Source: a virus
Virus record (IMG/VR): IMGVR_UViG_3300044844_000872
Coordinates: 1 to 36,541 of that record
Length of the DNA: 36,541 nucleotides
Reading direction: 5' to 3' (one strand)
Every line of letters begins with the position of its first letter. Positions within the stretch are counted from its first letter, which is position 1. Under the pieces are notes generated by a model, which ran no database searches, was not told where the DNA came from, and saw only the letters and a program-made list of their open reading frames with translations. The position numbers and the translations under genes are program-made. Of this stretch, positions 1 through 36,541 are shown piece after piece.

Positions 1-164
1 GGTTGCGGGGTGTCTGTTGGCTCGATCACATCCAGGTATTCTGCAACGCGGCAGTCGTTGACTAAATGCGCGGCGAAATCGTCTGACACGTTGATGATGT
101 CGCCGGTTTCTAGCGCTCCGTGGGTGGCCGTGATGGCAGTGCCTAAAATTTTGACTCTGGGCAT
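1..164 (-). CDS. Capsid decoration-like protein, 5' part (continues at 36541)
   Basis: This is the first 54 codons of a small head protein whose remainder is at 36178-36541, because the contig ends join into a circle. It starts at ATG 162-164, just downstream of the major capsid gene. The N-terminal pattern (MPRVKIL, then ALETGDIINVSDDFAAHLV) resembles small phage head-decoration or head-fibre proteins, which commonly read hydrophobic-K-hydrophobic, then a GD, then an A..L. segment. Closed across the junction the gene would be 151 residues, with a 53-residue tandem duplication; without the duplication it would be 98. The tail is rich in P, T, E, D and K and probably disordered. The head role is inferred from position and N-terminal pattern only. 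Confidence 0.6.
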   Translation of the reverse strand, partial: MPRVKILGTAITATHGALETGDIINVSDDFAAHLVNDCRVAEYLDVIEPTDTPQ

Positions 165-2269: not shown

Positions 2270-3508
2270 TTACTGGGCTAAATCGCTGATCGATGCGCCG
2301 GACTGCGGCGCGGTTTGCTGCCCAAGTTTGTCAATGGGCAGCAGGTTGGATTGGGCTGTGTATATTTCGCCGCCTGAAAACGGTGGCAAATTCTCGTATT
2401 GTCGGCAGTCGTTGCGGTTATAAATGCCGTTTTGGGCGGCTTTGGCGTAGATTTCCATCCGATCTTTTAAGCTGGATCGCAACAGGGCATCCATGTTGAA
2501 TTCTGCGGTTAATCTTGATTTCTGACTGATGGCCATCACGCGCTTTCTGATCGCCTGTTCGATGTTGACCACGTCCGGACGAATGGTGACTTTGTAAAAG
2601 CTGTCGATAATTTGCTCAGAACTGGCGCCCAGCGTGGTGGTGCCTTCTGTCTGGTTCATCAGCACGGCCGGCACGCCGAACCAGCGTCCGATCTCCTGCA
2701 CGGTGAATTGTCGAGTGGTCAGCAGCTCAATATCCTGTGGCGTGAGGTTTATCGGGGTAAATTTGGCGTCAAACGGCAGCACGGCAATGGTGCGGCCACC
2801 GTTGGCGACTTCGTCCATGCGTTCGCCTGCGGCCTGCCATTGCTCTGCCTTGAGCGTTGACGCGCCGACGCCGACTAATCCGGTGGTTCTGCCGCCTTTT
2901 TTAAACAAAGTATTGGCCGCGCCTTGGGTGTTTCTGGCTTCCGCCAGCGTGCTACGCATAAATTCTGACCGCGATATGCCGACCAATCCGCCGCCCATTT
3001 CTTTAATGTGCAGCATGTTTTCGGCGGGAATATCGCGTGTGGTGCCCGTGCCGTCTTTGACTTTGTAAATGTCTCCGCCACCGTCGATAAAGTTGGGCTC
3101 TACGTCATCAGCTGACAGCGGGTTGATGGCGTAAGCTGTTCCGTTTGGGTTGCGTTTTATTTCTGCATAGGCGTTGCCGCGTAGCAGATAATTGACCATC
3201 ATCGACACCCAAAACTCGTAGGGCGTTTGCCGTGCGTTTGGGCTTTCGTGCAGCAAGGCCCACAACGATTCGTCGCGGGCATCGGTGCGGATGCCGTTGT
3301 TATTGCTGTACACCATCAAAGGCATACTGGCGACGGTTTTTGCGCGGATTTCGACAGCCCGCCAGACAGCGGCGATTTGCATCGCGGCATCAATGCCGAC
3401 CGGGGCTGTATCGAACACCAGCGGCTCGACCGGTGCCATCACTTGCTTGCCGTAGCGGTTGCGCAGCGTGGCGGATCGGCTAAAGCCTAAAAATTGCAGT
3501 ATGCCCAT
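2270..3508 (-). CDS. HK97-family portal protein
   Basis: Portal protein of 412 residues, forming the dodecameric ring at the single portal vertex through which DNA enters and the tail attaches. Recognisable family segments include AVWRAVEIRAKTVASMPL near residue 50, LLHESPNARQTPYEFW near residue 85, LLRGNAYAEI at about 110, and the wing/stem region RQFTVQEIGRWFGVPAVLM near 265. Its length is normal for the HK97/phage_portal family. The start overlaps the stop of the terminase nuclease gene as TGATG, implying translational coupling. Confidence 0.93.
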   Translation of the reverse strand: MGILQFLGFSRSATLRNRYGKQVMAPVEPLVFDTAPVGIDAAMQIAAVWRAVEIRAKTVASMPLMVYSNNNGIRTDARDESLWALLHESPNARQTPYEFWVSMMVNYLLRGNAYAEIKRNPNGTAYAINPLSADDVEPNFIDGGGDIYKVKDGTGTTRDIPAENMLHIKEMGGGLVGISRSEFMRSTLAEARNTQGAANTLFKKGGRTTGLVGVGASTLKAEQWQAAGERMDEVANGGRTIAVLPFDAKFTPINLTPQDIELLTTRQFTVQEIGRWFGVPAVLMNQTEGTTTLGASSEQIIDSFYKVTIRPDVVNIEQAIRKRVMAISQKSRLTAEFNMDALLRSSLKDRMEIYAKAAQNGIYNRNDCRQYENLPPFSGGEIYTAQSNLLPIDKLGQQTAPQSGASISDLAQ

Positions 3509-4134
3509 CAGATGCCTATGGGGTTTGATAAAAAGAAATCCAGATCTGGCGAGGTATCCGCCAACATGGCGCGACCGACGGCCATCATTAAGGCGACAGC
3601 CGGGTCGATTTTTTCGCTGCTTTTGTTTTTGGCGGGCTTGATGTTGCCTGCCGGGTCTTGATCCGCGACGACGTTGGACATCGCCCAGTTTAAAACCGGG
3701 TCGTTCGCGTGTTGGATCTGGCCGGTTAAGTAGCGGCGTTCCAGTTCTTTCATGGCCGGCGACATGGATAAGTAGCCCTGGCCATAGCTGACCATCGGCG
3801 CGCCTTGTTCCAGCATGTCGTTGACCAGCTGACTCGAGTTGTAGCGGTCGAACACGATTTCTTTAACTGGCAGGGTTTCTAGCCAGTGGTCGAGGTCGTG
3901 TTTGATCCAGTTGTAATCGGTGACGCTGCCGGGTGTCAGCGTCAGCCAGCCTTGTTCGTGCCATTGCCGAAACGGGACGGCGGTTTTGCGGTAGATGTTG
4001 TCAATCGCGTCTTCCGGCAGATAGTGTTTACCGAAGACTCGCCACGTGCCGTCGGCCATGATGGCTACGCCGGTGGCGCTGGCAATGTCTGAGATTTGGG
4101 CTAGGTCGAGGCCGATGTAGACTTCGGCAATCAC
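3508..4134 (-). CDS. Terminase large subunit, separate nuclease (C-terminal) part
   Basis: This 208-residue protein corresponds to the RNase H-like headful nuclease half of an HK97-type large terminase. It begins right before the first catalytic acidic strand (YIGLDLA, D10). Further family acids are visible at D96 (EIVFDRYNS) and D177 (KIDPAVALMMA). In relatives this domain is fused behind the ATPase in one protein; here the ATPase is encoded separately at 4358-5488 with a small gene in between. The GTG start overlaps the stop of that small gene (GTGA), so it should be translated by coupling. All three nuclease acids are kept, so the domain looks functional rather than decaying. Whether the two halves reassemble as subunits is inference. 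Confidence 0.85.
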   Translation of the reverse strand: MIAEVYIGLDLAQISDIASATGVAIMADGTWRVFGKHYLPEDAIDNIYRKTAVPFRQWHEQGWLTLTPGSVTDYNWIKHDLDHWLETLPVKEIVFDRYNSSQLVNDMLEQGAPMVSYGQGYLSMSPAMKELERRYLTGQIQHANDPVLNWAMSNVVADQDPAGNIKPAKNKSSEKIDPAVALMMAVGRAMLADTSPDLDFFLSNPIGI

Positions 4135-4355
4135 GCCTTTTCAGTTAATTCTTTAACAATTTTCAAAACAACGGAATGTCTTAATCCGCAGTTGATAACA
4201 GACAGCCAGTCAACCCTTGCTGGCTGTTCAATATAAACTGTAATTTCAGCTCTTGGTGCCTTTCCATGCTCTAGCCTAATGACACAATTAGCCATATTTT
4301 TAATGTCAGAAAGTCCAAGTGCGTTCAAAACTTCTTGGTTTGTTGCAATTTGCAT
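4131..4355 (-). CDS. Small AT-rich gene inserted inside the large terminase
   Basis: I do not recognise this 74-residue protein. ATG 4355 is preferred: GGAG lies 8 nt upstream and the start is 2 nt after the stop of the ATPase half. An upstream GTG at 4364 is an alternative. It has an amphipathic N-terminal helix (NQEVLNALGL), a likely beta-hairpin (AEITVYIEQP) and a basic C-terminal helix. The segment is about 36% GC against about 57% in the flanking terminase halves, a clear sign of recent acquisition. The start and stop are interlocked with both neighbours (a stop/ATG gap of 2 nt and a GTGA overlap), so translation of the operon continues through it. Function unknown; it could bridge or regulate the two terminase halves, or simply be a moron. 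Confidence 0.7.
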   Translation of the reverse strand: MQIATNQEVLNALGLSDIKNMANCVIRLEHGKAPRAEITVYIEQPARVDWLSVINCGLRHSVVLKIVKELTEKA

Positions 4356-4357
4356 AT

Positions 4358-5488
4358 TTACCACTCCGCAGGATCACGACTAAACTCACCCGCACACGCC
4401 AGCCATCGCTCAACGTTGCACCACAACGACTCGCCGGTGACCCACACATTAAGGTGTTTGGTTAAAAAATTGACTTTGGCCGTCGGCATGATGGCGGCCT
4501 GGCGGGCTTGTTCCCGCAAGTAGTCCATGCCGACCGACACGCCCAGGTTTGGGTTGGCCTTAATCCAGTTGGCTTCGTCTTGCCAGTCGTCGCCGTCGTC
4601 CAGGGTGTAGATGACAGCAAAGAAGGCGTCGTCATCGATGACGCCAGTCAATACTTTGATCGCGTAGTCGCGGACCTCGTAACAGATGCCGTTTTTGTTA
4701 AATCCTGCGGTGGTGATCGCCCAGATCAACGGTTGACGTCGCGCACCCAAGGCGGATTTTAAAACGTCCCACACTTCCGGCGTTTTGTGTGCGTGTAGCT
4801 CATCGACCAGCGCCATGTGCGGATTTAAGCCGTCCATGCTGTTGGCGTCGGCGGATAGCGGTTCTATCTTGCCGAAGCCCCGCACGTTGATGATCTTGTG
4901 CTGTTGCACGTCCAAGCGGGTTCGGAGCGCTTTCGACTGCTTGACCATCCGCGCGGCTTCGTCAAACAGGATGCGGGCCTGATCGCGTTTGGTTGCGGCG
5001 GCGTAGATTTCCGGGCCGCCTTCATCGTCCTTGGTTAATCCTTTGAGGCCGATGCCGGCCAGCTTGGTCGTCTTGCCGTTCTTGCGGGCGATTTCTTCAT
5101 ACACCGTGCGGAAGCGGCGCTTGCCGGTGTCTTCGTGAACCCAGCCAAACACGGTGGAGATAATCCATGATTGCCATGGCTCCAGCTCAACGGTTTGGCC
5201 CGCCCACTCCCCTTTTGAGTGCTTTAAGTAACTGAAAAAATGCAGCGCTCGGGCGGCTTGGTCTTCGTCAAAAAAAAAGCCGCGAGTAGCGGCCTTTTCT
5301 AAGTCGTTGGCATGGCGTTCGACGGCCAGCCGGGTGAATCGCCCGGTGCGTATTCGCCCGTTTAAAACGTCGCGCTGGTATTGCGCGGCTTTGTCGAGCG
5401 GGTTAGAAGCTGTCAAAGTCGTCGAAGATGTCCGATTGACCAGATTGGACGCCGCGCTCTGCTGCCGGCGCAAGGCCGAACTCGCCAA
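4358..5488 (-). CDS. Terminase large subunit, separate ATPase (N-terminal) part
   Basis: ATP-driven DNA-packaging motor, ATPase half. From the long start the Walker A-like box RKNGKT is at residues 135-140 and the Walker B ALVDE at 226-230, followed by the LHAHK motif typical of HK97/Terminase_1 proteins. The adaptor-type AAATKRDQA segment is at about 163. The protein stops (TAA at 4358-4360) after the conserved LNVWV and W.ACAGEF region, exactly where relatives continue into the nuclease. Start choice is uncertain: 5488 overlaps the small terminase gene by 86 bp, while a TTG at 5416, near the small subunit's end, gives an N-terminus (LTASNPLDKAAQY) more like the family. Confidence 0.88.
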   Translation of the reverse strand: MASSALRRQQSAASNLVNRTSSTTLTASNPLDKAAQYQRDVLNGRIRTGRFTRLAVERHANDLEKAATRGFFFDEDQAARALHFFSYLKHSKGEWAGQTVELEPWQSWIISTVFGWVHEDTGKRRFRTVYEEIARKNGKTTKLAGIGLKGLTKDDEGGPEIYAAATKRDQARILFDEAARMVKQSKALRTRLDVQQHKIINVRGFGKIEPLSADANSMDGLNPHMALVDELHAHKTPEVWDVLKSALGARRQPLIWAITTAGFNKNGICYEVRDYAIKVLTGVIDDDAFFAVIYTLDDGDDWQDEANWIKANPNLGVSVGMDYLREQARQAAIMPTAKVNFLTKHLNVWVTGESLWCNVERWLACAGEFSRDPAEW

Positions 5489-5846
5489 CTAATGATCGCC
5501 ATTTCCGCCAGTCGTCGTTCAGTTGTGCGACGGCTGGGCGGGCTTTGAATTGAGTGCCGTTTCGGCCGCCTGTGACATAGTGCCACTCTTTTTCGTCCAG
5601 CTCTTTGCGGGCGTTTACCAGGCGAACCCGGACGACGCAGTATTCGCCAAGCGTGTCGGCAAAATGGGGTTTTAGTCTGCCGAGCATGACCAGCTCTGGC
5701 GCGATTTTGTCCCAGACTTTGATTTCATCGTCGCTTAGCCATTCCGGGCGGATCGCGGCTGCTTTGGCAATGTGAACCGCTTGCGGTTCATCGTGTAGCG
5801 GCATGGCTACAACGTTTGATAAATCCGGTTTTCGTCCTCTACTCAT
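5403..5846 (-). CDS. Terminase small subunit, P27 family
   Basis: DNA-recognition subunit of the packaging terminase, about 147 residues. The N-terminus MSRGRKPDLSNVVAMP is typical of P27/TerS proteins, as is the central helical segment (EWLSDDEIKVWDKIAPEL, then LGRLKPHFADTLGEYC). It ends in an acidic tail (FDDFDSF), which in this family often contacts the large subunit. ATG 5846 is preferred because AGGAG sits 9 nt upstream. It lies between the HNH nuclease and the large terminase, a standard cassette in HK97-like phages. Confidence 0.88.
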   Translation of the reverse strand: MSRGRKPDLSNVVAMPLHDEPQAVHIAKAAAIRPEWLSDDEIKVWDKIAPELVMLGRLKPHFADTLGEYCVVRVRLVNARKELDEKEWHYVTGGRNGTQFKARPAVAQLNDDWRKWRSLVGEFGLAPAAERGVQSGQSDIFDDFDSF

Positions 5847-5937
5847 AATCACCCACTCCTACAAGCCATGGGCTTTTTCTATTTAATTCAATTTCCGCGC
5901 AAGAAAAGAAGGGGCAACGCACGGCGGCGGGAAAGGC

Positions 5938-6312
5938 CTAGACTTTCGACCCGCCCCCGGTCTCTTTGAATGTCTTGCTGTTGTGGCATGACTTGCATAA
6001 CGATTGCAGATTGCAATCATCCAACTCCGCGCCGCCTTGCTTGACTGGCACGATATGATCCACAACCCGCGCTTCAACCAGCCTGCCTTGCGCACGACAG
6101 CTGCGGCACAATGGCTCAGACTTAAGATGCAATGCCCTGACACGCTTCCAAGCCGCAGAGTCATAAAGCCTGACCCGCTGTCCCGTTGCCTGCCTGACTT
6201 GATTGTACGTTTGATGCGACTGCTTTCTGTGCGCATCACAGAACCCGTAACGACCATGCACCAACTCACGGCAACCACCGTGCCGACAAGGACGCGGCGC
6301 TGCAACCGGCAC
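5938..6312 (-). CDS. HNH endonuclease of the packaging cassette
   Basis: HNH nuclease of 124 residues. The catalytic beta-beta-alpha metal fold is visible at about 88-118: VDHIVPVKQGG, then DDCNLQSLC and KSCHNSKTF (H90, N103, H113 region). The fold is framed by zinc-binding pairs CRSC and CKSC. A second Cys/His cluster sits at the N-terminus (CRHGGC, YGFCDAH). HNH genes adjacent to terS/terL are common, and in HK97-like phages (gp74) they assist terminase cleavage and packaging. GTG 6312 overlaps the stop of the preceding gene (TAGTG). Confidence 0.88.
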   Translation of the reverse strand: MPVAAPRPCRHGGCRELVHGRYGFCDAHRKQSHQTYNQVRQATGQRVRLYDSAAWKRVRALHLKSEPLCRSCRAQGRLVEARVVDHIVPVKQGGAELDDCNLQSLCKSCHNSKTFKETGGGSKV

Positions 6313-16213: not shown

Positions 16214-16575
16214 AAACCATTGACCTCCACGCCGCCGCCGCCTTACTGCACATGCACCCAAGCACCGTACTGGCCAAAGCGCGCGCTGGCATAATCCCCG
16301 CCGCAAAACCCGGAAAAGCCTGGGTGTTTATAGATGAAGATTTGATTGCCTACCTGCGAGGCCTATACAATCAACCCCAGCAGGATGCAAGCGACACAGA
16401 AAAACAGGAGGCCACATGGTCAAGCTCTTTAAAAAATCAGGCTCAGGTTGCTGGTATTACAAATTCGGCATCCGTGGCAAAACAATATACCAATCTACTG
16501 GAACCAAAAACAAAGCCGAAGCCCAAGAAATTGCAGACAAAGCCCGAGCAGAAGCGTACAACGTCATTGCACTAG
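16210..16575 (+). CDS. Excisionase-like HTH protein
   Basis: A 121-residue protein whose first 55 residues form a MerR/AlpA-type winged helix (LHAAAALLHMHPSTVLAKARAG, then GKAWVFIDEDLIAYLR), the HTH_17/excisionase family. The C-terminal half is low-complexity and Lys/Pro/Thr-rich, and its last 160 bp overlap the integrase start in another frame. Position directly before the integrase suggests it directs excision, and perhaps transcription. The functional protein may need only the N-terminal domain. Confidence 0.7.
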   Translation: MKTIDLHAAAALLHMHPSTVLAKARAGIIPAAKPGKAWVFIDEDLIAYLRGLYNQPQQDASDTEKQEATWSSSLKNQAQVAGITNSASVAKQYTNLLEPKTKPKPKKLQTKPEQKRTTSLH

Positions 16576-17450
16576 GCCAACGTCCGCGTAGAACATGGCA
16601 AGAGGCCGTCGTTAAATGGCTAACGGAATCTGAAAAAAAGTCACTGGACACAGACCGCTATCACTTCAAATGGCTGGACAGTTATTTGGGTGACTTGTAT
16701 CTGGATGAAATCGACGAAACAAAAATCGATGAAATTATTCAGGCTAAGCTGAAAGTGGCCGGCAAAGTGCGCGTCAACCGAACTACGGAACTGGTCCGCG
16801 CGGTATTGCGTAAAGCCATGAGCGAATGGAAATGGATCGACAGCGTTCCGCACATTCCGCGCTTTAAAGAACGTACTGGCAGACTGCGCTGGTTAACGCA
16901 CGACGAAGCCGCGCGATTGATGGACGAATTGCAACCGCACACCAAAGCGATGGCATTGTTTACGCTGGCCACTGGCCTGCGAAAATCCAATGTCACACAT
17001 TTGGAATGGTCACAAATCGACATGCAACGCAAAATCGCTTGGATACATGCCGATCAGGCCAAATCTGAAAAAACGATTCGGGTACCGCTTAACCAGGACG
17101 CCATCAACGTCCTACGCGAACAGATAGGTAAACACACCACGCGCGTGTTTACCTATCGCGGCAAACCCATCGAAAAAGCAGGGACAAAGTTTTGGAGATT
17201 GGCACTCAAACGCGCCGGGATTGAAAATTTTACTTGGCACGGTTTGCGACACACATGGGCCAGCTGGCACATTCAAAACGGCACACCTTTAAACGTGTTG
17301 CAGGAATTGGGGGGTTGGGCGAGTTACGATATGGTGCTGCGCTATGCACATCTAGCGCCTGACCATTTGCAGGAATATGCTGGCAATATTAACGGGATCG
17401 TTGCAAATGAGTTGCAGCCCAGAACTGCAACGATCACGAAAATACGCTAA
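16416..17450 (+). CDS. int: Tyrosine integrase
   Basis: A site-specific recombinase of 344 residues. The N-terminal arm-binding region of about 60 residues is followed by a core-binding domain and a catalytic domain. The catalytic residues are visible: R189 (ATGLRKSN), H275 and R278 (WHGLRHTW) and nucleophile Y310 (RYAHLAP). A strong AGGAGG lies a few bases before ATG 16416. It is the last gene of the rightward operon, directly followed by the attachment region with a tRNA 3' fragment at 17465. Its reading frame contains arm-type motif copies near its end. Confidence 0.95.
   Translation: MVKLFKKSGSGCWYYKFGIRGKTIYQSTGTKNKAEAQEIADKARAEAYNVIALGQRPRRTWQEAVVKWLTESEKKSLDTDRYHFKWLDSYLGDLYLDEIDETKIDEIIQAKLKVAGKVRVNRTTELVRAVLRKAMSEWKWIDSVPHIPRFKERTGRLRWLTHDEAARLMDELQPHTKAMALFTLATGLRKSNVTHLEWSQIDMQRKIAWIHADQAKSEKTIRVPLNQDAINVLREQIGKHTTRVFTYRGKPIEKAGTKFWRLALKRAGIENFTWHGLRHTWASWHIQNGTPLNVLQELGGWASYDMVLRYAHLAPDHLQEYAGNINGIVANELQPRTATITKIR
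17396..17435 (+). promoter_or_regulatory. Candidate integrase arm-type sites, left set
   Basis: GATCGTTGCA (17396-17405) and its inverse TGCAACGATC (17426-17435) flank GAGTTGCAG (17409-17417). The same 9-mers ATCGTTGCA and GAGTTGCAG recur at 19598-19616 on the far side of the tRNA-Met fragment and the IS. Repeats on both sides of a core are what arm-type integrase sites look like. The inverted pair could alternatively serve as a hairpin after int. Confidence 0.5.
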
Positions 17451-17571: not shown

Positions 17572-18864
17572 TTAAAATTCTCCATCTTCTTCCATCTCGA
17601 TCAGTGTGGGCATGTGGGTGCCGTAGTTGAGAGATTCATCCCGCATAAAGCTCATATGATTTCTATCGCCTCGATCTGATAACAGAGACCTGATCGACTT
17701 GGATTCTCTTTTGTGCGCCTTCTCGGCGAATAGCATTTTCGCTCTGAGGGCATTAAACGAGTAACCCCTGCCGTTCCTATTCATGATCTTGATAATGCCG
17801 TTCAAGCTCTCTGTGTAAGCGTTGGTGACGGGGTGGTCGAAGTAGTTGAATATCTGTGTTCTCCAGTTTTTCATGGCCCTGGTTAGCTTGGTGAAATGTG
17901 GCTTGATTTCATCTTCAATCCCGTCACGCCAGCAGTCGTAAAGGTCTTTAGCCTTCTGCTTCTCGCCAGCTTCCCAGATGCCGTAATATGCTTCTTTGGC
18001 AACATACGCTTTCTCAAGAAGCGGGTAGTTGCTGATAATGCCAGAAAGCTTTAAATACTCTTCCTGGTCAAGCTCCTTGCCATGTTTAAGCATGACGAAC
18101 CTATCGCCAAGCATGGCTTTTCGTCCTTCAGCGGTTAACTCTGTTCTGATAGCTTTCCGCGCCGATTCCATACCATCTCCGGCCAGCCTGACTACATGGA
18201 ACTTATCGATAACGATCTTGGCATTGGGAAACATCTTTCTGGCGACATGCGCATAAGGTCGCCACATATCCATAGTCACCAGTTCAACCTTATCCCGATC
18301 TGGCATACTGTAAAGGGCGCTGATAACCTTGTCCTGCTTTCTGAACTCGAACATTTCGACAATGGTGTTATGCTCAACATTGGTGACAACGCACCGCATT
18401 TTCTTGTTGAGATGAACTTCATCGATCCCAAGCCAGCGCGGGGTAACGACCTTAAATTGCTTGTTAAGGCCGGTTGCATAATCCTCGAATATGTTGCGCA
18501 CGGTCTTCTCATTTAAGCCCGTATCGTGCGCTACGCTCGTGAATGTGTGGTCTATGGCCCGTTTGCTAACCCATTCAACCAATCGCTTAGTAGCAAGCCT
18601 CTTGTCGTCAATATCGGGCAATTCTTCCATGAATGTCTTGCCACAATCCTTGCAGCGAAAACGCTTTCTAAGCACTCTGATAACTACCTTTTTGCCGTGC
18701 ATTGGCGTATCGTTCACAAGCTGCTTTTTGATGCCGTGACCGATGAAATTGAACTTGAAACAGTGATGGCAGAACAGCGTTTCCCTAATTGATTCGGCTA
18801 TGACTTCATAGCCAACATCGTGATTAATAACCTCAACCTCTTTTAACCAATCAAGATTGAGCAT
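17572..18864 (-). CDS. tnpA: ISL3-family transposase
   Basis: A 430-residue transposase. An N-terminal zinc-binding region has C32-x2-C35 and C71-x2-C74, followed by an HTH (HTFTSVAHDTGLNEKTVRNIF). The DDE catalytic core has D148 (WLGIDEVHL), D220 (IVIDKFHVV; D199 in VTMDMW lies in the same region) and E352 (NAYTESLNGIIK). Length and motifs are normal for an intact ISL3 transposase. Its ATG lies 14 bp inside the end of the Lar-like gene, so it is translated as the last gene of a three-gene IS operon. Confidence 0.95.
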   Translation of the reverse strand: MLNLDWLKEVEVINHDVGYEVIAESIRETLFCHHCFKFNFIGHGIKKQLVNDTPMHGKKVVIRVLRKRFRCKDCGKTFMEELPDIDDKRLATKRLVEWVSKRAIDHTFTSVAHDTGLNEKTVRNIFEDYATGLNKQFKVVTPRWLGIDEVHLNKKMRCVVTNVEHNTIVEMFEFRKQDKVISALYSMPDRDKVELVTMDMWRPYAHVARKMFPNAKIVIDKFHVVRLAGDGMESARKAIRTELTAEGRKAMLGDRFVMLKHGKELDQEEYLKLSGIISNYPLLEKAYVAKEAYYGIWEAGEKQKAKDLYDCWRDGIEDEIKPHFTKLTRAMKNWRTQIFNYFDHPVTNAYTESLNGIIKIMNRNGRGYSFNALRAKMLFAEKAHKRESKSIRSLLSDRGDRNHMSFMRDESLNYGTHMPTLIEMEEDGEF

Positions 18865-26887: not shown

Positions 26888-27561
26888 CCGTTTGCACACT
26901 CCAAATCAAACAGCGTTGTTTGTGCTGTAGCCAGCTCGAACCGTTTGCAGGCGGCATCGTAATAATCTTTATCCAATTCCGTGCCGACAAAATCGACGCC
27001 GAAATAATGCGCGGCAATGGCACTGCTACCGCTGCCTAGATGGGTATCCAGTATTTTTTGGCCGGGTTTGGCGTAGTTTTCGAGTAGCCATTGATAGAGT
27101 TTTATGGGTTTTTGGGTTGGGTGGATCCTGACTTCTTTGTTTTTCATGTCGCCTTGCAACATGCCATTCCATGTATAAAAAAACTTTCGCAATGCAACAT
27201 CAAACGAACTAAAAGCCAATTCACAATCAGAAAATTTTGTCGTCCCATTATCTTTATCCCAAACAATCCAGCCCATTGACGGCGGTAGATAATGAGACAT
27301 GTAATTAGCGCCCCACACAATTTGATTTTTTGAAATACGGATAAGCTCATCGAAATAGTTTTTATCGGGGATAGATTTATCCCACCCTTTTTTTTCAAAA
27401 GCTGATTTTAATGCCGCGCCTTTTCCGCTTTTGCGCAACTCACCACTAAACGCATTGCCAGCGTCAATCCCATAAGGCGGATCCACAATAGCCAAATCAA
27501 ACGCCTTGTCCGGCAAACCGCGCATGTAATCCATGCAATCCATGTTCAGCAACTCAATCAT
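26884..27561 (-). CDS. DNA methyltransferase (N6-adenine/N4-cytosine class)
   Basis: A 225-residue amino-methyltransferase. Catalytic motif IV DPPYG (27-31) precedes the SAM-binding motif I (LDTHLGSGSS, 171-180), the beta-class order. HPTQKP (147-152) is the usual motif X region. It has no partner nuclease, so it is an orphan modification enzyme that probably protects phage DNA or alters host expression. It is wedged between tail genes L and K with 4-bp overlaps on both sides, so it is made with the tail proteins, late in infection. Confidence 0.9.
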   Translation of the reverse strand: MIELLNMDCMDYMRGLPDKAFDLAIVDPPYGIDAGNAFSGELRKSGKGAALKSAFEKKGWDKSIPDKNYFDELIRISKNQIVWGANYMSHYLPPSMGWIVWDKDNGTTKFSDCELAFSSFDVALRKFFYTWNGMLQGDMKNKEVRIHPTQKPIKLYQWLLENYAKPGQKILDTHLGSGSSAIAAHYFGVDFVGTELDKDYYDAACKRFELATAQTTLFDLECANG

Positions 27562-34497: not shown

Positions 34498-34571
34498 CAA
34501 CCCACCAGCCACAAAAGCAGCGTAAACAGGCACGCGACGAGAAAGTATTTCCAGATGTGGGCGGTCATCAT
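34497..34571 (-). CDS. Tiny membrane peptide after SGNH hydrolase
   Basis: A 24-residue peptide (MMTAHIWKYFLVACLFTLLL...), one transmembrane helix. Its ATG overlaps the SGNH stop (ATGA), and its stop overlaps the next start. It is too short to be certain, but the interlocked starts and stops on both sides argue that it is translated. Confidence 0.45.
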   Translation of the reverse strand: MMTAHIWKYFLVACLFTLLLWLVG

Positions 34572-36181
34572 CCTATTTTCTCAAATGAAATACGGCCAAA
34601 TTCAAAAGTACCTGCGCCCGACGCTTTAAATACAACCCAGATATTGAGAGCGTTCATCAGCGTTTGCCAGTCGCCCCACAATATCGGCTTACTGCCTATG
34701 GTTAATTCAACATCATCTGTAATCGCATCAAATCCAGAGCCAGGATCAGCGCCTTGATTGTTTGCATTCCAATATGTCGATGAATTAAATAACCCTATTT
34801 GCACAGCTCTTAAATTTGCCGCACCTGTGCGTTTGCATGACATGCTAAACCGTACAATGTCACCATTCACAAACGCCGCTTTATCAATGGTCGGACGGAT
34901 AAATATGCGGTCGTTATCATTAGTAGTGCCGCCAATTAATGCGACAATATTTTGACCATAACCGTCTGAACGATTAGCAACAGAAAACGTCACTGTTCCA
35001 GTCCCTGCTCTTGTATCCCATCCAGCCGCGCAGTTTGTAGGGATGTTGCCAGAAACGCCTGTGCCTGATGCCACTTGAGTGCCAAGCATTAACGGGTTTC
35101 TGACGGCCTGCTTGCTGGCGTTATCGTAGTTATAAGACAAGTTGCCATCAGTAATCAGTGGAGATGCAACAGGATACTGGCTTGCAAAGGCGGCAAGCAG
35201 CAATTTGTAAATCTGGTGCATACCGTTGGCATTTGGATGAATACCTGTGGCATCACTCCAATAGCTTGTCACGCCAACACCAGTGCTTTTGTTTGTTAAT
35301 GCCGCATTTGCCGGGATTAAAACAAAATTTGGATAAATATCAGCCAACCTGCGAATGGCTTGATTGATTCTAAGAATTTGTTTTTTCTTAGCCAAACTGT
35401 AGCTTGAGCCGGTTTCTAAAATTGGCGTTATTTCAGCCCGCCAGTACTTAATGCCGTTGCTAGCAGCAAGGGCGGCCATCGCAGTTATGTTTGCAATTGT
35501 ATCGGCTTCGGTTACAGTGCCAGAGTTAACGTCATTGATTCCGCAGTTGTCATAAATAACAGCCGGATTCAATGACAAAACATGAGTTGTAAAATTAGCT
35601 AACGTTTCTGCGCTGGTAGTGCCTGACACTGAGCGATTTCTAATGTCGTAGAAATTACCGATGGCTGCATTAAAATTGTGTAAAAAAGCCCGTTGATTTG
35701 TGAAGTTATCAACTAGCACATTGATAGTCATGCCAGCTTTTGCGGTTGGGCTTGCAGTCAATGTCGTGCTGTTTATAAATGTTATCGTGCTGGTTGCTGA
35801 GTCATACGTCGAAACTATTTTTTCACCGTTCCACTCCTCTTGCGCGACACCCGATATAAAAATCGTTTGTCCTGGAACGGTGTTCCCGCCAAACGTGCCA
35901 ATTGTGCCGATATTGCCGGAGCCCGATAGCGTGACTGCTGAATCAATATAATTTTGACCGGCGTTAATGCTGTCGCCGATTACGACTAAAACAGGTTTAT
36001 TTAAAAAACTACCGACCCGCACACCTGCTGAAATTTCGTCTATAGTAAATCCTGATTTGATAGGTTTTATTTGATAAGTTGCAATCCCTAAATTTACCAA
36101 TCGATATTCCTCGTTAGCCGACAACGACGCAATGTCCTGATCACAATACCCATTCCACTGCCGTAAAAATCGAATCGTCAT
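34568..36181 (-). CDS. SGNH-hydrolase with head-decoration-like N-terminus
   Basis: A 537-residue protein in three parts. Residues 1-40 (MTIRFLRQWNGYCDQDIASL and LVNLGIATYQ) resemble small capsid-decoration proteins. Residues about 60-335 are an SGNH/GDSL esterase with GDS (69-71), GIND (214-217) and IHPN with H315; the preceding Asp is D310, so the spacing is slightly unusual. Residues 345-537 are a beta-sandwich-like module (GYGQNIVALIGG, VRFSMSCKRTGAANLRAVQIGLF). The esterase could deacetylate surface polysaccharide. Its start overlaps the decoration gene stop (ATGA), and it lies between head genes, not tail genes. Confidence 0.8.
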   Translation of the reverse strand: MTIRFLRQWNGYCDQDIASLSANEEYRLVNLGIATYQIKPIKSGFTIDEISAGVRVGSFLNKPVLVVIGDSINAGQNYIDSAVTLSGSGNIGTIGTFGGNTVPGQTIFISGVAQEEWNGEKIVSTYDSATSTITFINSTTLTASPTAKAGMTINVLVDNFTNQRAFLHNFNAAIGNFYDIRNRSVSGTTSAETLANFTTHVLSLNPAVIYDNCGINDVNSGTVTEADTIANITAMAALAASNGIKYWRAEITPILETGSSYSLAKKKQILRINQAIRRLADIYPNFVLIPANAALTNKSTGVGVTSYWSDATGIHPNANGMHQIYKLLLAAFASQYPVASPLITDGNLSYNYDNASKQAVRNPLMLGTQVASGTGVSGNIPTNCAAGWDTRAGTGTVTFSVANRSDGYGQNIVALIGGTTNDNDRIFIRPTIDKAAFVNGDIVRFSMSCKRTGAANLRAVQIGLFNSSTYWNANNQGADPGSGFDAITDDVELTIGSKPILWGDWQTLMNALNIWVVFKASGAGTFEFGRISFEKIG

Positions 36182-36541
36182 ACTGCTGTCTCCGTGTCAA
36201 TCGCATCATCGACCGGCGCTTGCTGTGCTGCGGTTTGCTCCGCGTCGTCAAACGCTTGTTTCTGCGTTTTGCGGGTGGTTTTTTTTGCTTCCGGTGTTTC
36301 TGGTGCGTCCGGTTGCGGGGTGTCTGTTGGCTCGATCACATCCAGGTATTCTGCAACGCGGCAGTCGTTGACTAAATGCGCGGCGAAATCGTCTGACACG
36401 TTGATGATGTCGCCGGTTTCTAGCGCTCCGTGGGTGGTTTTTTTTGCTTCCGGTGTTTCTGGTGCGTCCGGTTGCGGGGTGTCTGTTGGCTCGATCACAT
36501 CCAGGTATTCTGCAACGCGGCAGTCGTTGACTAAATGCGCG
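36178..36541 (-). CDS. Capsid decoration-like protein, 3' part (continues from 1-164)
   Basis: The second portion of the gene that starts at 164. The reading frame is open from the contig end to TGA 36178-36180 and holds the segment THGALETGDIIN to EAKK twice when the ends are joined (a 53-residue tandem repeat). The C-terminus is charged and flexible (RKTQKQAFDDAEQ, then a D/E/T-rich end). Stop and SGNH start overlap (ATGA). Confidence 0.6.
   Translation of the reverse strand, partial: AHLVNDCRVAEYLDVIEPTDTPQPDAPETPEAKKTTHGALETGDIINVSDDFAAHLVNDCRVAEYLDVIEPTDTPQPDAPETPEAKKTTRKTQKQAFDDAEQTAAQQAPVDDAIDTETAV
36273..36541. repeat. 159-bp tandem duplication and 72-bp terminal overlap
   Basis: Bases from 36273 onward repeat at 36432 onward with a 159-bp period (53 codons, in frame). 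The last 72 bases (36470-36541) equal bases 1-72, and bases 1-127 equal 36311-36437. The junctions share GGGTGG. This is either a real in-frame duplication or an assembly artefact where a circular contig was closed. Confidence 0.9.

What the first reader, a model, noticed from the sequence alone, without database searches (positions are those of the whole stretch)
3508..5488. Large terminase split into separate ATPase and nuclease genes by an AT-rich insert
Seen: the ATPase half stops after the conserved W.ACAGEF region, and the nuclease half starts at the first catalytic strand (YIGLDLA). A 229-bp insert (4132-4360) of about 36% GC, against about 57% around it, carries a 74-codon gene interlocked with both halves (a 2-nt gap to its ATG, a GTGA overlap at its end). 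Joining the last Trp of the first half to the second residue of the other gives a continuous family-like sequence. Known: HK97-type TerL is normally one polypeptide. Inference: a recent insertion turned it into a two-subunit motor, with the small protein possibly bridging or regulating the subunits. Every catalytic residue is retained, so this does not look like decay.
Basis: partly seen in the sequence, partly recalled or inferred. Interest (0 to 1): 0.75.

Follow-up and report, generated by a model that had tools for sequence, protein, structure and literature searches.

The report
Two-gene phage terminase with swappable insert
A small lineage of freshwater phages, probably infecting methane-eating bacteria, makes its DNA-packaging motor protein as two separate proteins with a small, exchangeable accessory gene between their genes, although separating these two parts in the well-studied phage T4 abolished packaging.

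Summary
On the minus strand an HK97-type TerL is encoded as an ATPase gene (4358-5488), a 74-codon AT-rich ORF (4131-4355) and a nuclease gene (3508-4134), with all catalytic motifs kept. The interpretation needs revising. Two related phages from other metagenomes (L003, L058; 82-89% TerL identity) are split at the same point, each with a different, unrelated AT-rich small gene in the gap. The nearest fused relative (L059) lacks the 229 bp. The split is therefore probably older than the present insert, and both halves show strong purifying selection (dN/dS about 0.03-0.13). Relatives of the inserts occur elsewhere in other phages and prophages: beside a tail-tube gene (insert A, tentative), in an early region, upstream of a terS. 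The gap is best read as an exchangeable slot for accessory genes; a terminase-bridging subunit is unlikely. I found no intron, intein, homing endonuclease or assembly error. The halves most likely associate non-covalently and are translationally coupled through the cargo ORF (inferred). T4 gp17 cut at its linker loses DNA translocation, so a natural split TerL under selection makes the linkage requirement testable. I found no report of an intron-less, HEG-less split TerL. Packaging function is not shown.

The parts
4358..5488 (-). TerL ATPase half (376 aa from TTG; the true start may be further downstream, near residue 25). Walker A IARKNGKTT, Walker B LVDELH; ends ...WLACAGEFSRDPAEW*. Carries the lid/linker region that Pfam counts as the first 82 positions of TerL_nuclease.
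   Evidence: PF03354 4.9e-38 and PF20441 2-82; phrog_9 2e-117; HK97 TerL 6z6d to chain residue 307
4131..4355 (-). Cargo ORF A, 74 aa, no known family; ATG 2 nt after the ATPase stop; GGAG Shine-Dalgarno inside the last ATPase codons; stop overlaps the nuclease start
   Evidence: tentative homologue L277:5835-6113(-) in another genome of the same bacterial family
3508..4134 (-). TerL nuclease half (208 aa, GTG start): RNase H-like fold with aspartates in YIGLDLA, VFDRYN and EKIDPAVALMMA
   Evidence: PF20441 94-283, 1.2e-30; HK97 TerL 6z6d chain 308-512, 1.1e-28
4132..4360 (.). 229-bp AT-rich segment (37% GC) absent from the nearest fused relative L059
5403..5852 (-). Small terminase TerS
   Evidence: PF05119 2e-14
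5938..6312 (-). HNH endonuclease directly upstream of TerS, placed like HK97 gp74
   Evidence: PF01844 8e-12; the position and cooperation of gp74 with the terminase are described in PMC10448857
2270..3508 (-). Portal protein, start overlapping the end of the nuclease half
   Evidence: PF04860 4e-81; its tree groups the three split phages at 100/99

Best explanation
This is an HK97-type (cos-like) large terminase that an ancestor of this phage lineage split into two genes, in the coil between the ATPase lid/linker helix and the first strand of the RNase H nuclease. The ATPase and nuclease proteins most likely re-associate non-covalently on the portal through the normal interdomain surface and work as a two-subunit TerL. 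The junction between the two genes is a tolerated slot in which small AT-rich accessory phage genes have been exchanged (A in the window, B in L003, C in L058). The cargo has no detectable promoter or terminator of its own. It is translated from a Shine-Dalgarno site in the last ATPase codons, and its stop overlaps or abuts the nuclease start, so the nuclease is probably made by translational coupling through the cargo ORF. Shown: split, shared site, different cargoes, selection on both halves, cargo relatives elsewhere. Inferred: physical association, packaging activity, coupling, a single ancestral split, and that the cargo is dispensable for packaging.
For: Same split point and junction motifs (DPxxW, then stop; M-(P)I(A/S)EVYIG) in the window/L001, L003 and L058, with unrelated inserts of 74, 75 and 92 aa and 38-41% GC. 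L059, 78/85% identical, is fused; the other fetched TerL loci show no split at this junction once start-site artefacts are removed. Purifying selection: dN/dS 0.09-0.13 in the nuclease and 0.03-0.08 in the ATPase among split phages. The portal tree groups the split phages at 100/99. Cargo relatives: B in L139 (64% identity, early region) and Stenotrophomonas phage S72 (40%); C in three genomes of the Methylococcales family group, one directly upstream of terS-terL, with 18 invariant columns; A tentatively beside a tail-tube gene. Junction maps to HK97 TerL chain residues 307/308 and to a coil between helix 335-340 and strand 353-361 in the L059 model (pLDDT 88-93). Shine-Dalgarno GGAG for A and B, weaker for C. 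No promoter-like site upstream of the cargo and no terminator. The genome closes as a circle across its ends and has head, tail and integrase genes. Precedents for functional split phage enzymes: NrdA of Aeh1, gp43A/B (PMC2988022).
Against: T4 gp17 split at its linker kept ATPase and nuclease activity but lost DNA translocation (PMC3012670). The nuclease-only tree places fused L059 among the split phages with weak support (log-likelihood difference 1.1, p-AU 0.04), so independent splits or a re-fusion are not excluded; the capsid tree also breaks the group, as recombination would. Only three distinct split phages are known, all metagenomic; there is no isolate, proteome or transcript. Cargo A's homology is weak (E 2.8e-4 for one genome of 237). 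The split clade shows few private substitutions, none an obvious interface compensation.
Confidence: 0.72

Rival explanations
1. One reading: a recent insertion of the 74-aa gene created the split, and its product bridges or regulates the two TerL subunits.
For: The insert is AT-rich and looks recently acquired, and its start and stop are tightly interlocked with both halves.
Against: The same split exists with two unrelated proteins in L003 and L058; relatives of the cargo families live elsewhere in other phages.
Confidence: 0.1
2. The slot is an insertion hotspot: unrelated small genes inserted independently three times at the same linker, each time splitting a fused TerL.
For: Fused L059 falls weakly inside the split group in the nuclease tree; the inserts share no sequence.
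Against: Shared ATPase C-terminus (DPxxW) and nuclease start across the three; the adjacent portal gene groups them at 100/99; synonymous differences group A, B and C in the nuclease (pS 0.49-0.53 against 0.72-0.83 to L059).
Confidence: 0.15
3. The halves are rejoined after transcription or translation, by an undescribed intron, ribosome bypassing, or trans protein splicing.
For: TerL genes interrupted by introns or inteins are known: Jug phages, ICP1, Bastillevirinae, Mic1, IBB_35; two relatives fetched here carry apparent inteins at Walker A.
Against: The inserts are 225-279-bp ORFs with no Rfam intron (tested in the window only), unrelated to each other; no intein residues lie at either end; upstream of the nuclease start its frame carries close stops in the window and in L058 (sequence).
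Confidence: 0.05
4. Defective prophage or assembly error: TerL is broken and the phage is dead or helper-dependent.
For: All sequences are metagenomic; an ISL3 transposase lies at 17572-18864; contig L035 breaks 23 bp from the insert.
Against: Identical insert in another assembly; split conserved in two divergent relatives with strong purifying selection; circular closure and structural genes with intact domain matches.
Confidence: 0.04

Closest known systems
HK97 TerL (PDB 6z6d; PF03354 + PF20441)
   Same: Same domains, catalytic motifs and gene neighbourhood (HNH, TerS, TerL, portal); the two halves align end to end on the HK97 chain (residues 28-307 and 308-512).
   Different: HK97 TerL is one polypeptide; here it is two, with a cargo gene between.
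Genes-in-pieces phage enzymes: Aeh1 split NrdA (mobE), T4 topoisomerase gene 60 (mobA), split DNA polymerase 43A/43B of Aeromonas phages (PMC2988022)
   Same: An essential enzyme split into separate ORFs; in NrdA and 43A/B the reassembled enzyme is active.
   Different: There the intruder is a homing endonuclease gene or an untranslated sequence. Here it is one of several unrelated small genes without nuclease homology, and the enzyme is TerL.
Intron- or intein-interrupted terL (Jug phages, ICP1, Bastillevirinae, Mic1, IBB_35)
   Same: terL reading frame interrupted.
   Different: Those are rejoined by RNA or protein splicing; no intron or intein is found here.
T4 gp17 split at its linker in the laboratory (Kanamaru 2004, as cited in PMC3012670)
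   Same: Cut between the ATPase and nuclease domains.
   Different: The artificial split lost DNA translocation; this natural split persists under purifying selection.

Membership tests
HK97-type large terminase | ATPase domain with Walker A and Walker B motifs | tested here: met
   PF03354 4.9e-38; IARKNGKTT and LVDELH present
HK97-type large terminase | RNase H-like nuclease with three catalytic aspartates (HK97 D302, D388, D471) | tested here: met
   PF20441 1.2e-30; aspartates in GLDLA, FDRYN and KIDPA aligned to 6z6d
HK97-type large terminase | Both domains on one polypeptide | tested here: not met
   Separate ORFs in three phages
HK97-type large terminase | TerS upstream and portal downstream | tested here: met
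   PF05119 and PF04860
HK97-type large terminase | DNA packaging activity | not testable with these tools
   Needs biochemistry
Intron-interrupted gene | Group I or II intron in the insert | tested here: not met
   No Rfam intron family at E<=1 in window 3500-5500
Intein or split intein | Intein blocks at the ends of the two halves | tested here: not met
   Halves end at DPAEW and start at (V)IAEVYIG, with no extra sequence
Genes-in-pieces split by a homing endonuclease | Homing endonuclease gene in the gap | tested here: not met
   No significant Pfam, PHROG, NCBIfam or PADLOC hit for cargoes A, B, C
Genes-in-pieces split by a homing endonuclease | Both fragments kept as intact ORFs under selection | tested here: met
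   dN/dS 0.03-0.13 among split phages
Phage moron | Extra gene, different in composition, between elements contiguous in relatives | tested here: met
   37% against 56-57% GC; absent from L059
Phage moron | Own promoter and terminator | tested here: not met
   No terminator-like site and no promoter-like site upstream of the cargo

The most novel reading that the evidence does not exclude
A natural packaging motor in which the ATPase and nuclease are separate, non-covalently associated subunits that still translocate and cut DNA, showing that covalent linkage of the TerL domains is not obligatory, with the gene junction serving as a translationally coupled docking slot for exchangeable accessory genes.
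Probability: 0.6. Interest if true: 0.75.

Novelty: new variant of a known kind. Interest (0 to 1): 0.62.

Why it matters
TerL is usually treated as one polypeptide whose domains must be linked for force transmission, and the T4 split lost translocation. A lineage that has kept both halves under purifying selection after the split offers a natural system to test whether ATPase-nuclease linkage is needed, how the two activities are coupled, and how stoichiometry is set by translation. It also shows an essential gene's junction used as an exchangeable slot for accessory genes, and warns that TerL-based phage surveys can mis-call such genomes as fragmented.

Tried and rejected
Assembly error: rejected. 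Intron: no Rfam family. Intein or trans-splicing: no intein residues at the ends. Other splits at this site: a viral-contig scan for ATGA just before the catalytic strand gave 119 loci; only 4 scored as TerL and all are fused, but only ATGA-type junctions with this strand motif were tested. Five loci first flagged as split are fused, their stop lying upstream of the start. Cargo A fold: single-sequence model too poor to search (pLDDT 55.5). Weak cargo A hits in 330-355-aa reading frames, like the Pfam tRNA-synthetase hit (E 0.14), were taken as chance. Defence families: none. No complex prediction was available. Idea considered but not tested: splitting TerL to escape Avs-type sensing of terminase (an Avs3-terminase structure appears in the fold search).

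Full report
What is there. On the minus strand the window carries an HK97-type packaging module: HNH endonuclease (5938-6312), TerS (5403-5852), TerL in two genes, portal (2270-3508) and prohead protease (1561-2259). The ATPase gene (4358-5488) ends ...WLACAGEFSRDPAEW-stop; the nuclease gene (3508-4134) starts at a GTG, VIAEVYIGLDLA. Between them lies a 74-codon ORF (4131-4355) whose ATG is 2 nt after the ATPase stop and whose stop overlaps the nuclease start. Pfam TerL_nuclease is shared between the halves (positions 2-82 and 94-283). On HK97 TerL (6z6d) the ATPase half aligns to chain residues 28-307 and the nuclease half to 308-512, so no domain is missing. The insert has 37% GC against 56-57% in its flanks, and only one other stretch of the genome is as AT-rich.

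Not an artefact. L001, another IMG/VR contig, is identical over 5.9 kb including the insert. The window ends share a 72-bp repeat, and L001 and L035 run across them, so the DNA exists as a circle or concatemer. Portal, protease, tape measure, tail tip, DnaB and integrase genes are present.

The split is shared and the cargo differs. L003 (85/89% identical in the ATPase and nuclease halves) and L058 (same contig as L031, L069 and L140; 82% over the 67 ATPase residues available, 86% in the nuclease) are split at the same point. Their gaps hold unrelated AT-rich ORFs of 75 and 92 codons. Junctions: A ...SRDPAEW-stop, (V)IAEVYIG; B ...SRDPAEWL-stop, MISEVYIG; C ...NPDPTTWE-stop, MPISEVYIG. In B, ATGA overlaps occur at both ends of the cargo. 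Flanking DNA of the window and L003 is about 78-79% identical on both sides, with no match across the insert. L059, from a Lake Erken metagenome-assembled genome, is the nearest fused relative (78/85%) and lacks the 229 bp. All other TerL loci fetched that cover the junction are fused there.

One split or several. The adjacent portal gene groups the three split phages apart from L059 at 100/99, and the ATPase tree groups the two usable ones at 89/92. The nuclease tree does not resolve the question (L059 weakly inside; log-likelihood difference 1.1), and the capsid tree conflicts strongly, as recombination would. Synonymous differences in the nuclease group A, B and C. A single ancestral split followed by cargo exchange is most economical; repeated insertion is not excluded.

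Function kept. Among split phages dN/dS is 0.09-0.13 in the nuclease and 0.03-0.08 in the ATPase, at dS around 0.8 or more. This speaks for function of both halves after the split if the split is ancestral.

What the cargo is. None of A, B, C matches Pfam, PHROGs, NCBIfam or PADLOC significantly. B has relatives in an early region with a NinB-like gene and an apparent DNA methylase gene (L139, 64%; these two gene names are by eye from the translations) and in Stenotrophomonas phage S72 (40%, among small hypothetical genes). C has relatives in three genomes of the family of the Methylococcales metagenome genome G002, sharing 18 invariant columns; one (L274) lies just upstream of terS-terL and another (L275) near tail genes. 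A has a tentative relative (32% over 64 residues, E 2.8e-4) beside a major tail protein gene in another genome of that family (L277). The genome holding L059 falls in the same family group, so the hosts are probably Methylococcales (inference). The cargoes look like accessory phage genes that move between slots.

How it probably works. In an AlphaFold model of fused L059 (mean pLDDT 85.9) the junction lies in the coil 343-352 between helix 335-340 and the first nuclease strand 353-361 (closest PDB match HK97 TerL). HK97 TerL has a strand between ATPase lid and nuclease that pairs with the nuclease hairpin (PMC9410871); by position this strand is probably retained in the ATPase half, which would give a ready non-covalent contact (inference). 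A GGAG Shine-Dalgarno inside the last ATPase codons serves cargoes A and B, while the nuclease starts have weak sites and overlap or abut the cargo stop. No promoter-like site upstream of the cargo and no terminator was found. Reinitiation through the cargo would therefore supply the nuclease (inference).

Against known systems. terL interrupted by introns or inteins is known, and functional split NrdA and DNA polymerase are known (PMC2988022). In the held library I found no TerL kept as two separate proteins without an intron, intein or homing endonuclease; subscription literature is largely not covered. T4 gp17 divided at its linker lost translocation (PMC3012670), which is the main reason for interest and the main argument against easy function.

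Limits. Three distinct split phages, all metagenomic. No isolate, RNA or protein data. Cargo A homology is weak. No complex prediction was possible.

Noticed in passing
L026:1960-3310 and L013 (= L040):90-1480: TerL relatives interrupted at Walker A by ~1-kb in-frame segments that look like inteins (CLPTHN-S at the exit in L026).
   Followed up: partly
window 17572-18864 (-): ISL3-family transposase gene next to the integrase (16416-17450) inside the phage genome.
   Followed up: no
window 1-72 and 36470-36541; also 36178-36498: 72-bp terminal direct repeat; L001 and L035 cross the ends. A 106-codon minus-strand ORF near this end lies over internally repeated DNA, and L035 differs from the window there, perhaps in repeat number.
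   Followed up: partly
L035 start = window 4108: A nearly identical contig from another IMG/VR dataset breaks 23 bp from the insert edge, which could mean several cargoes in one population.
   Followed up: no
window 27129-27424: The only other stretch as AT-rich as the insert, in the tail gene region; possibly another acquired segment.
   Followed up: no
L274:6371-6640, L275:6154-6423, L276:5905-6183, L058:9893-10171: An unnamed small-protein family (RHFIL...WA.PG) in genomes and phages of the Methylococcales family, found in several different gene contexts.
   Followed up: partly
window 34568-36181 (-): Gene with a GDSL-lipase domain (PF13472) near the end of the structural region.
   Followed up: no
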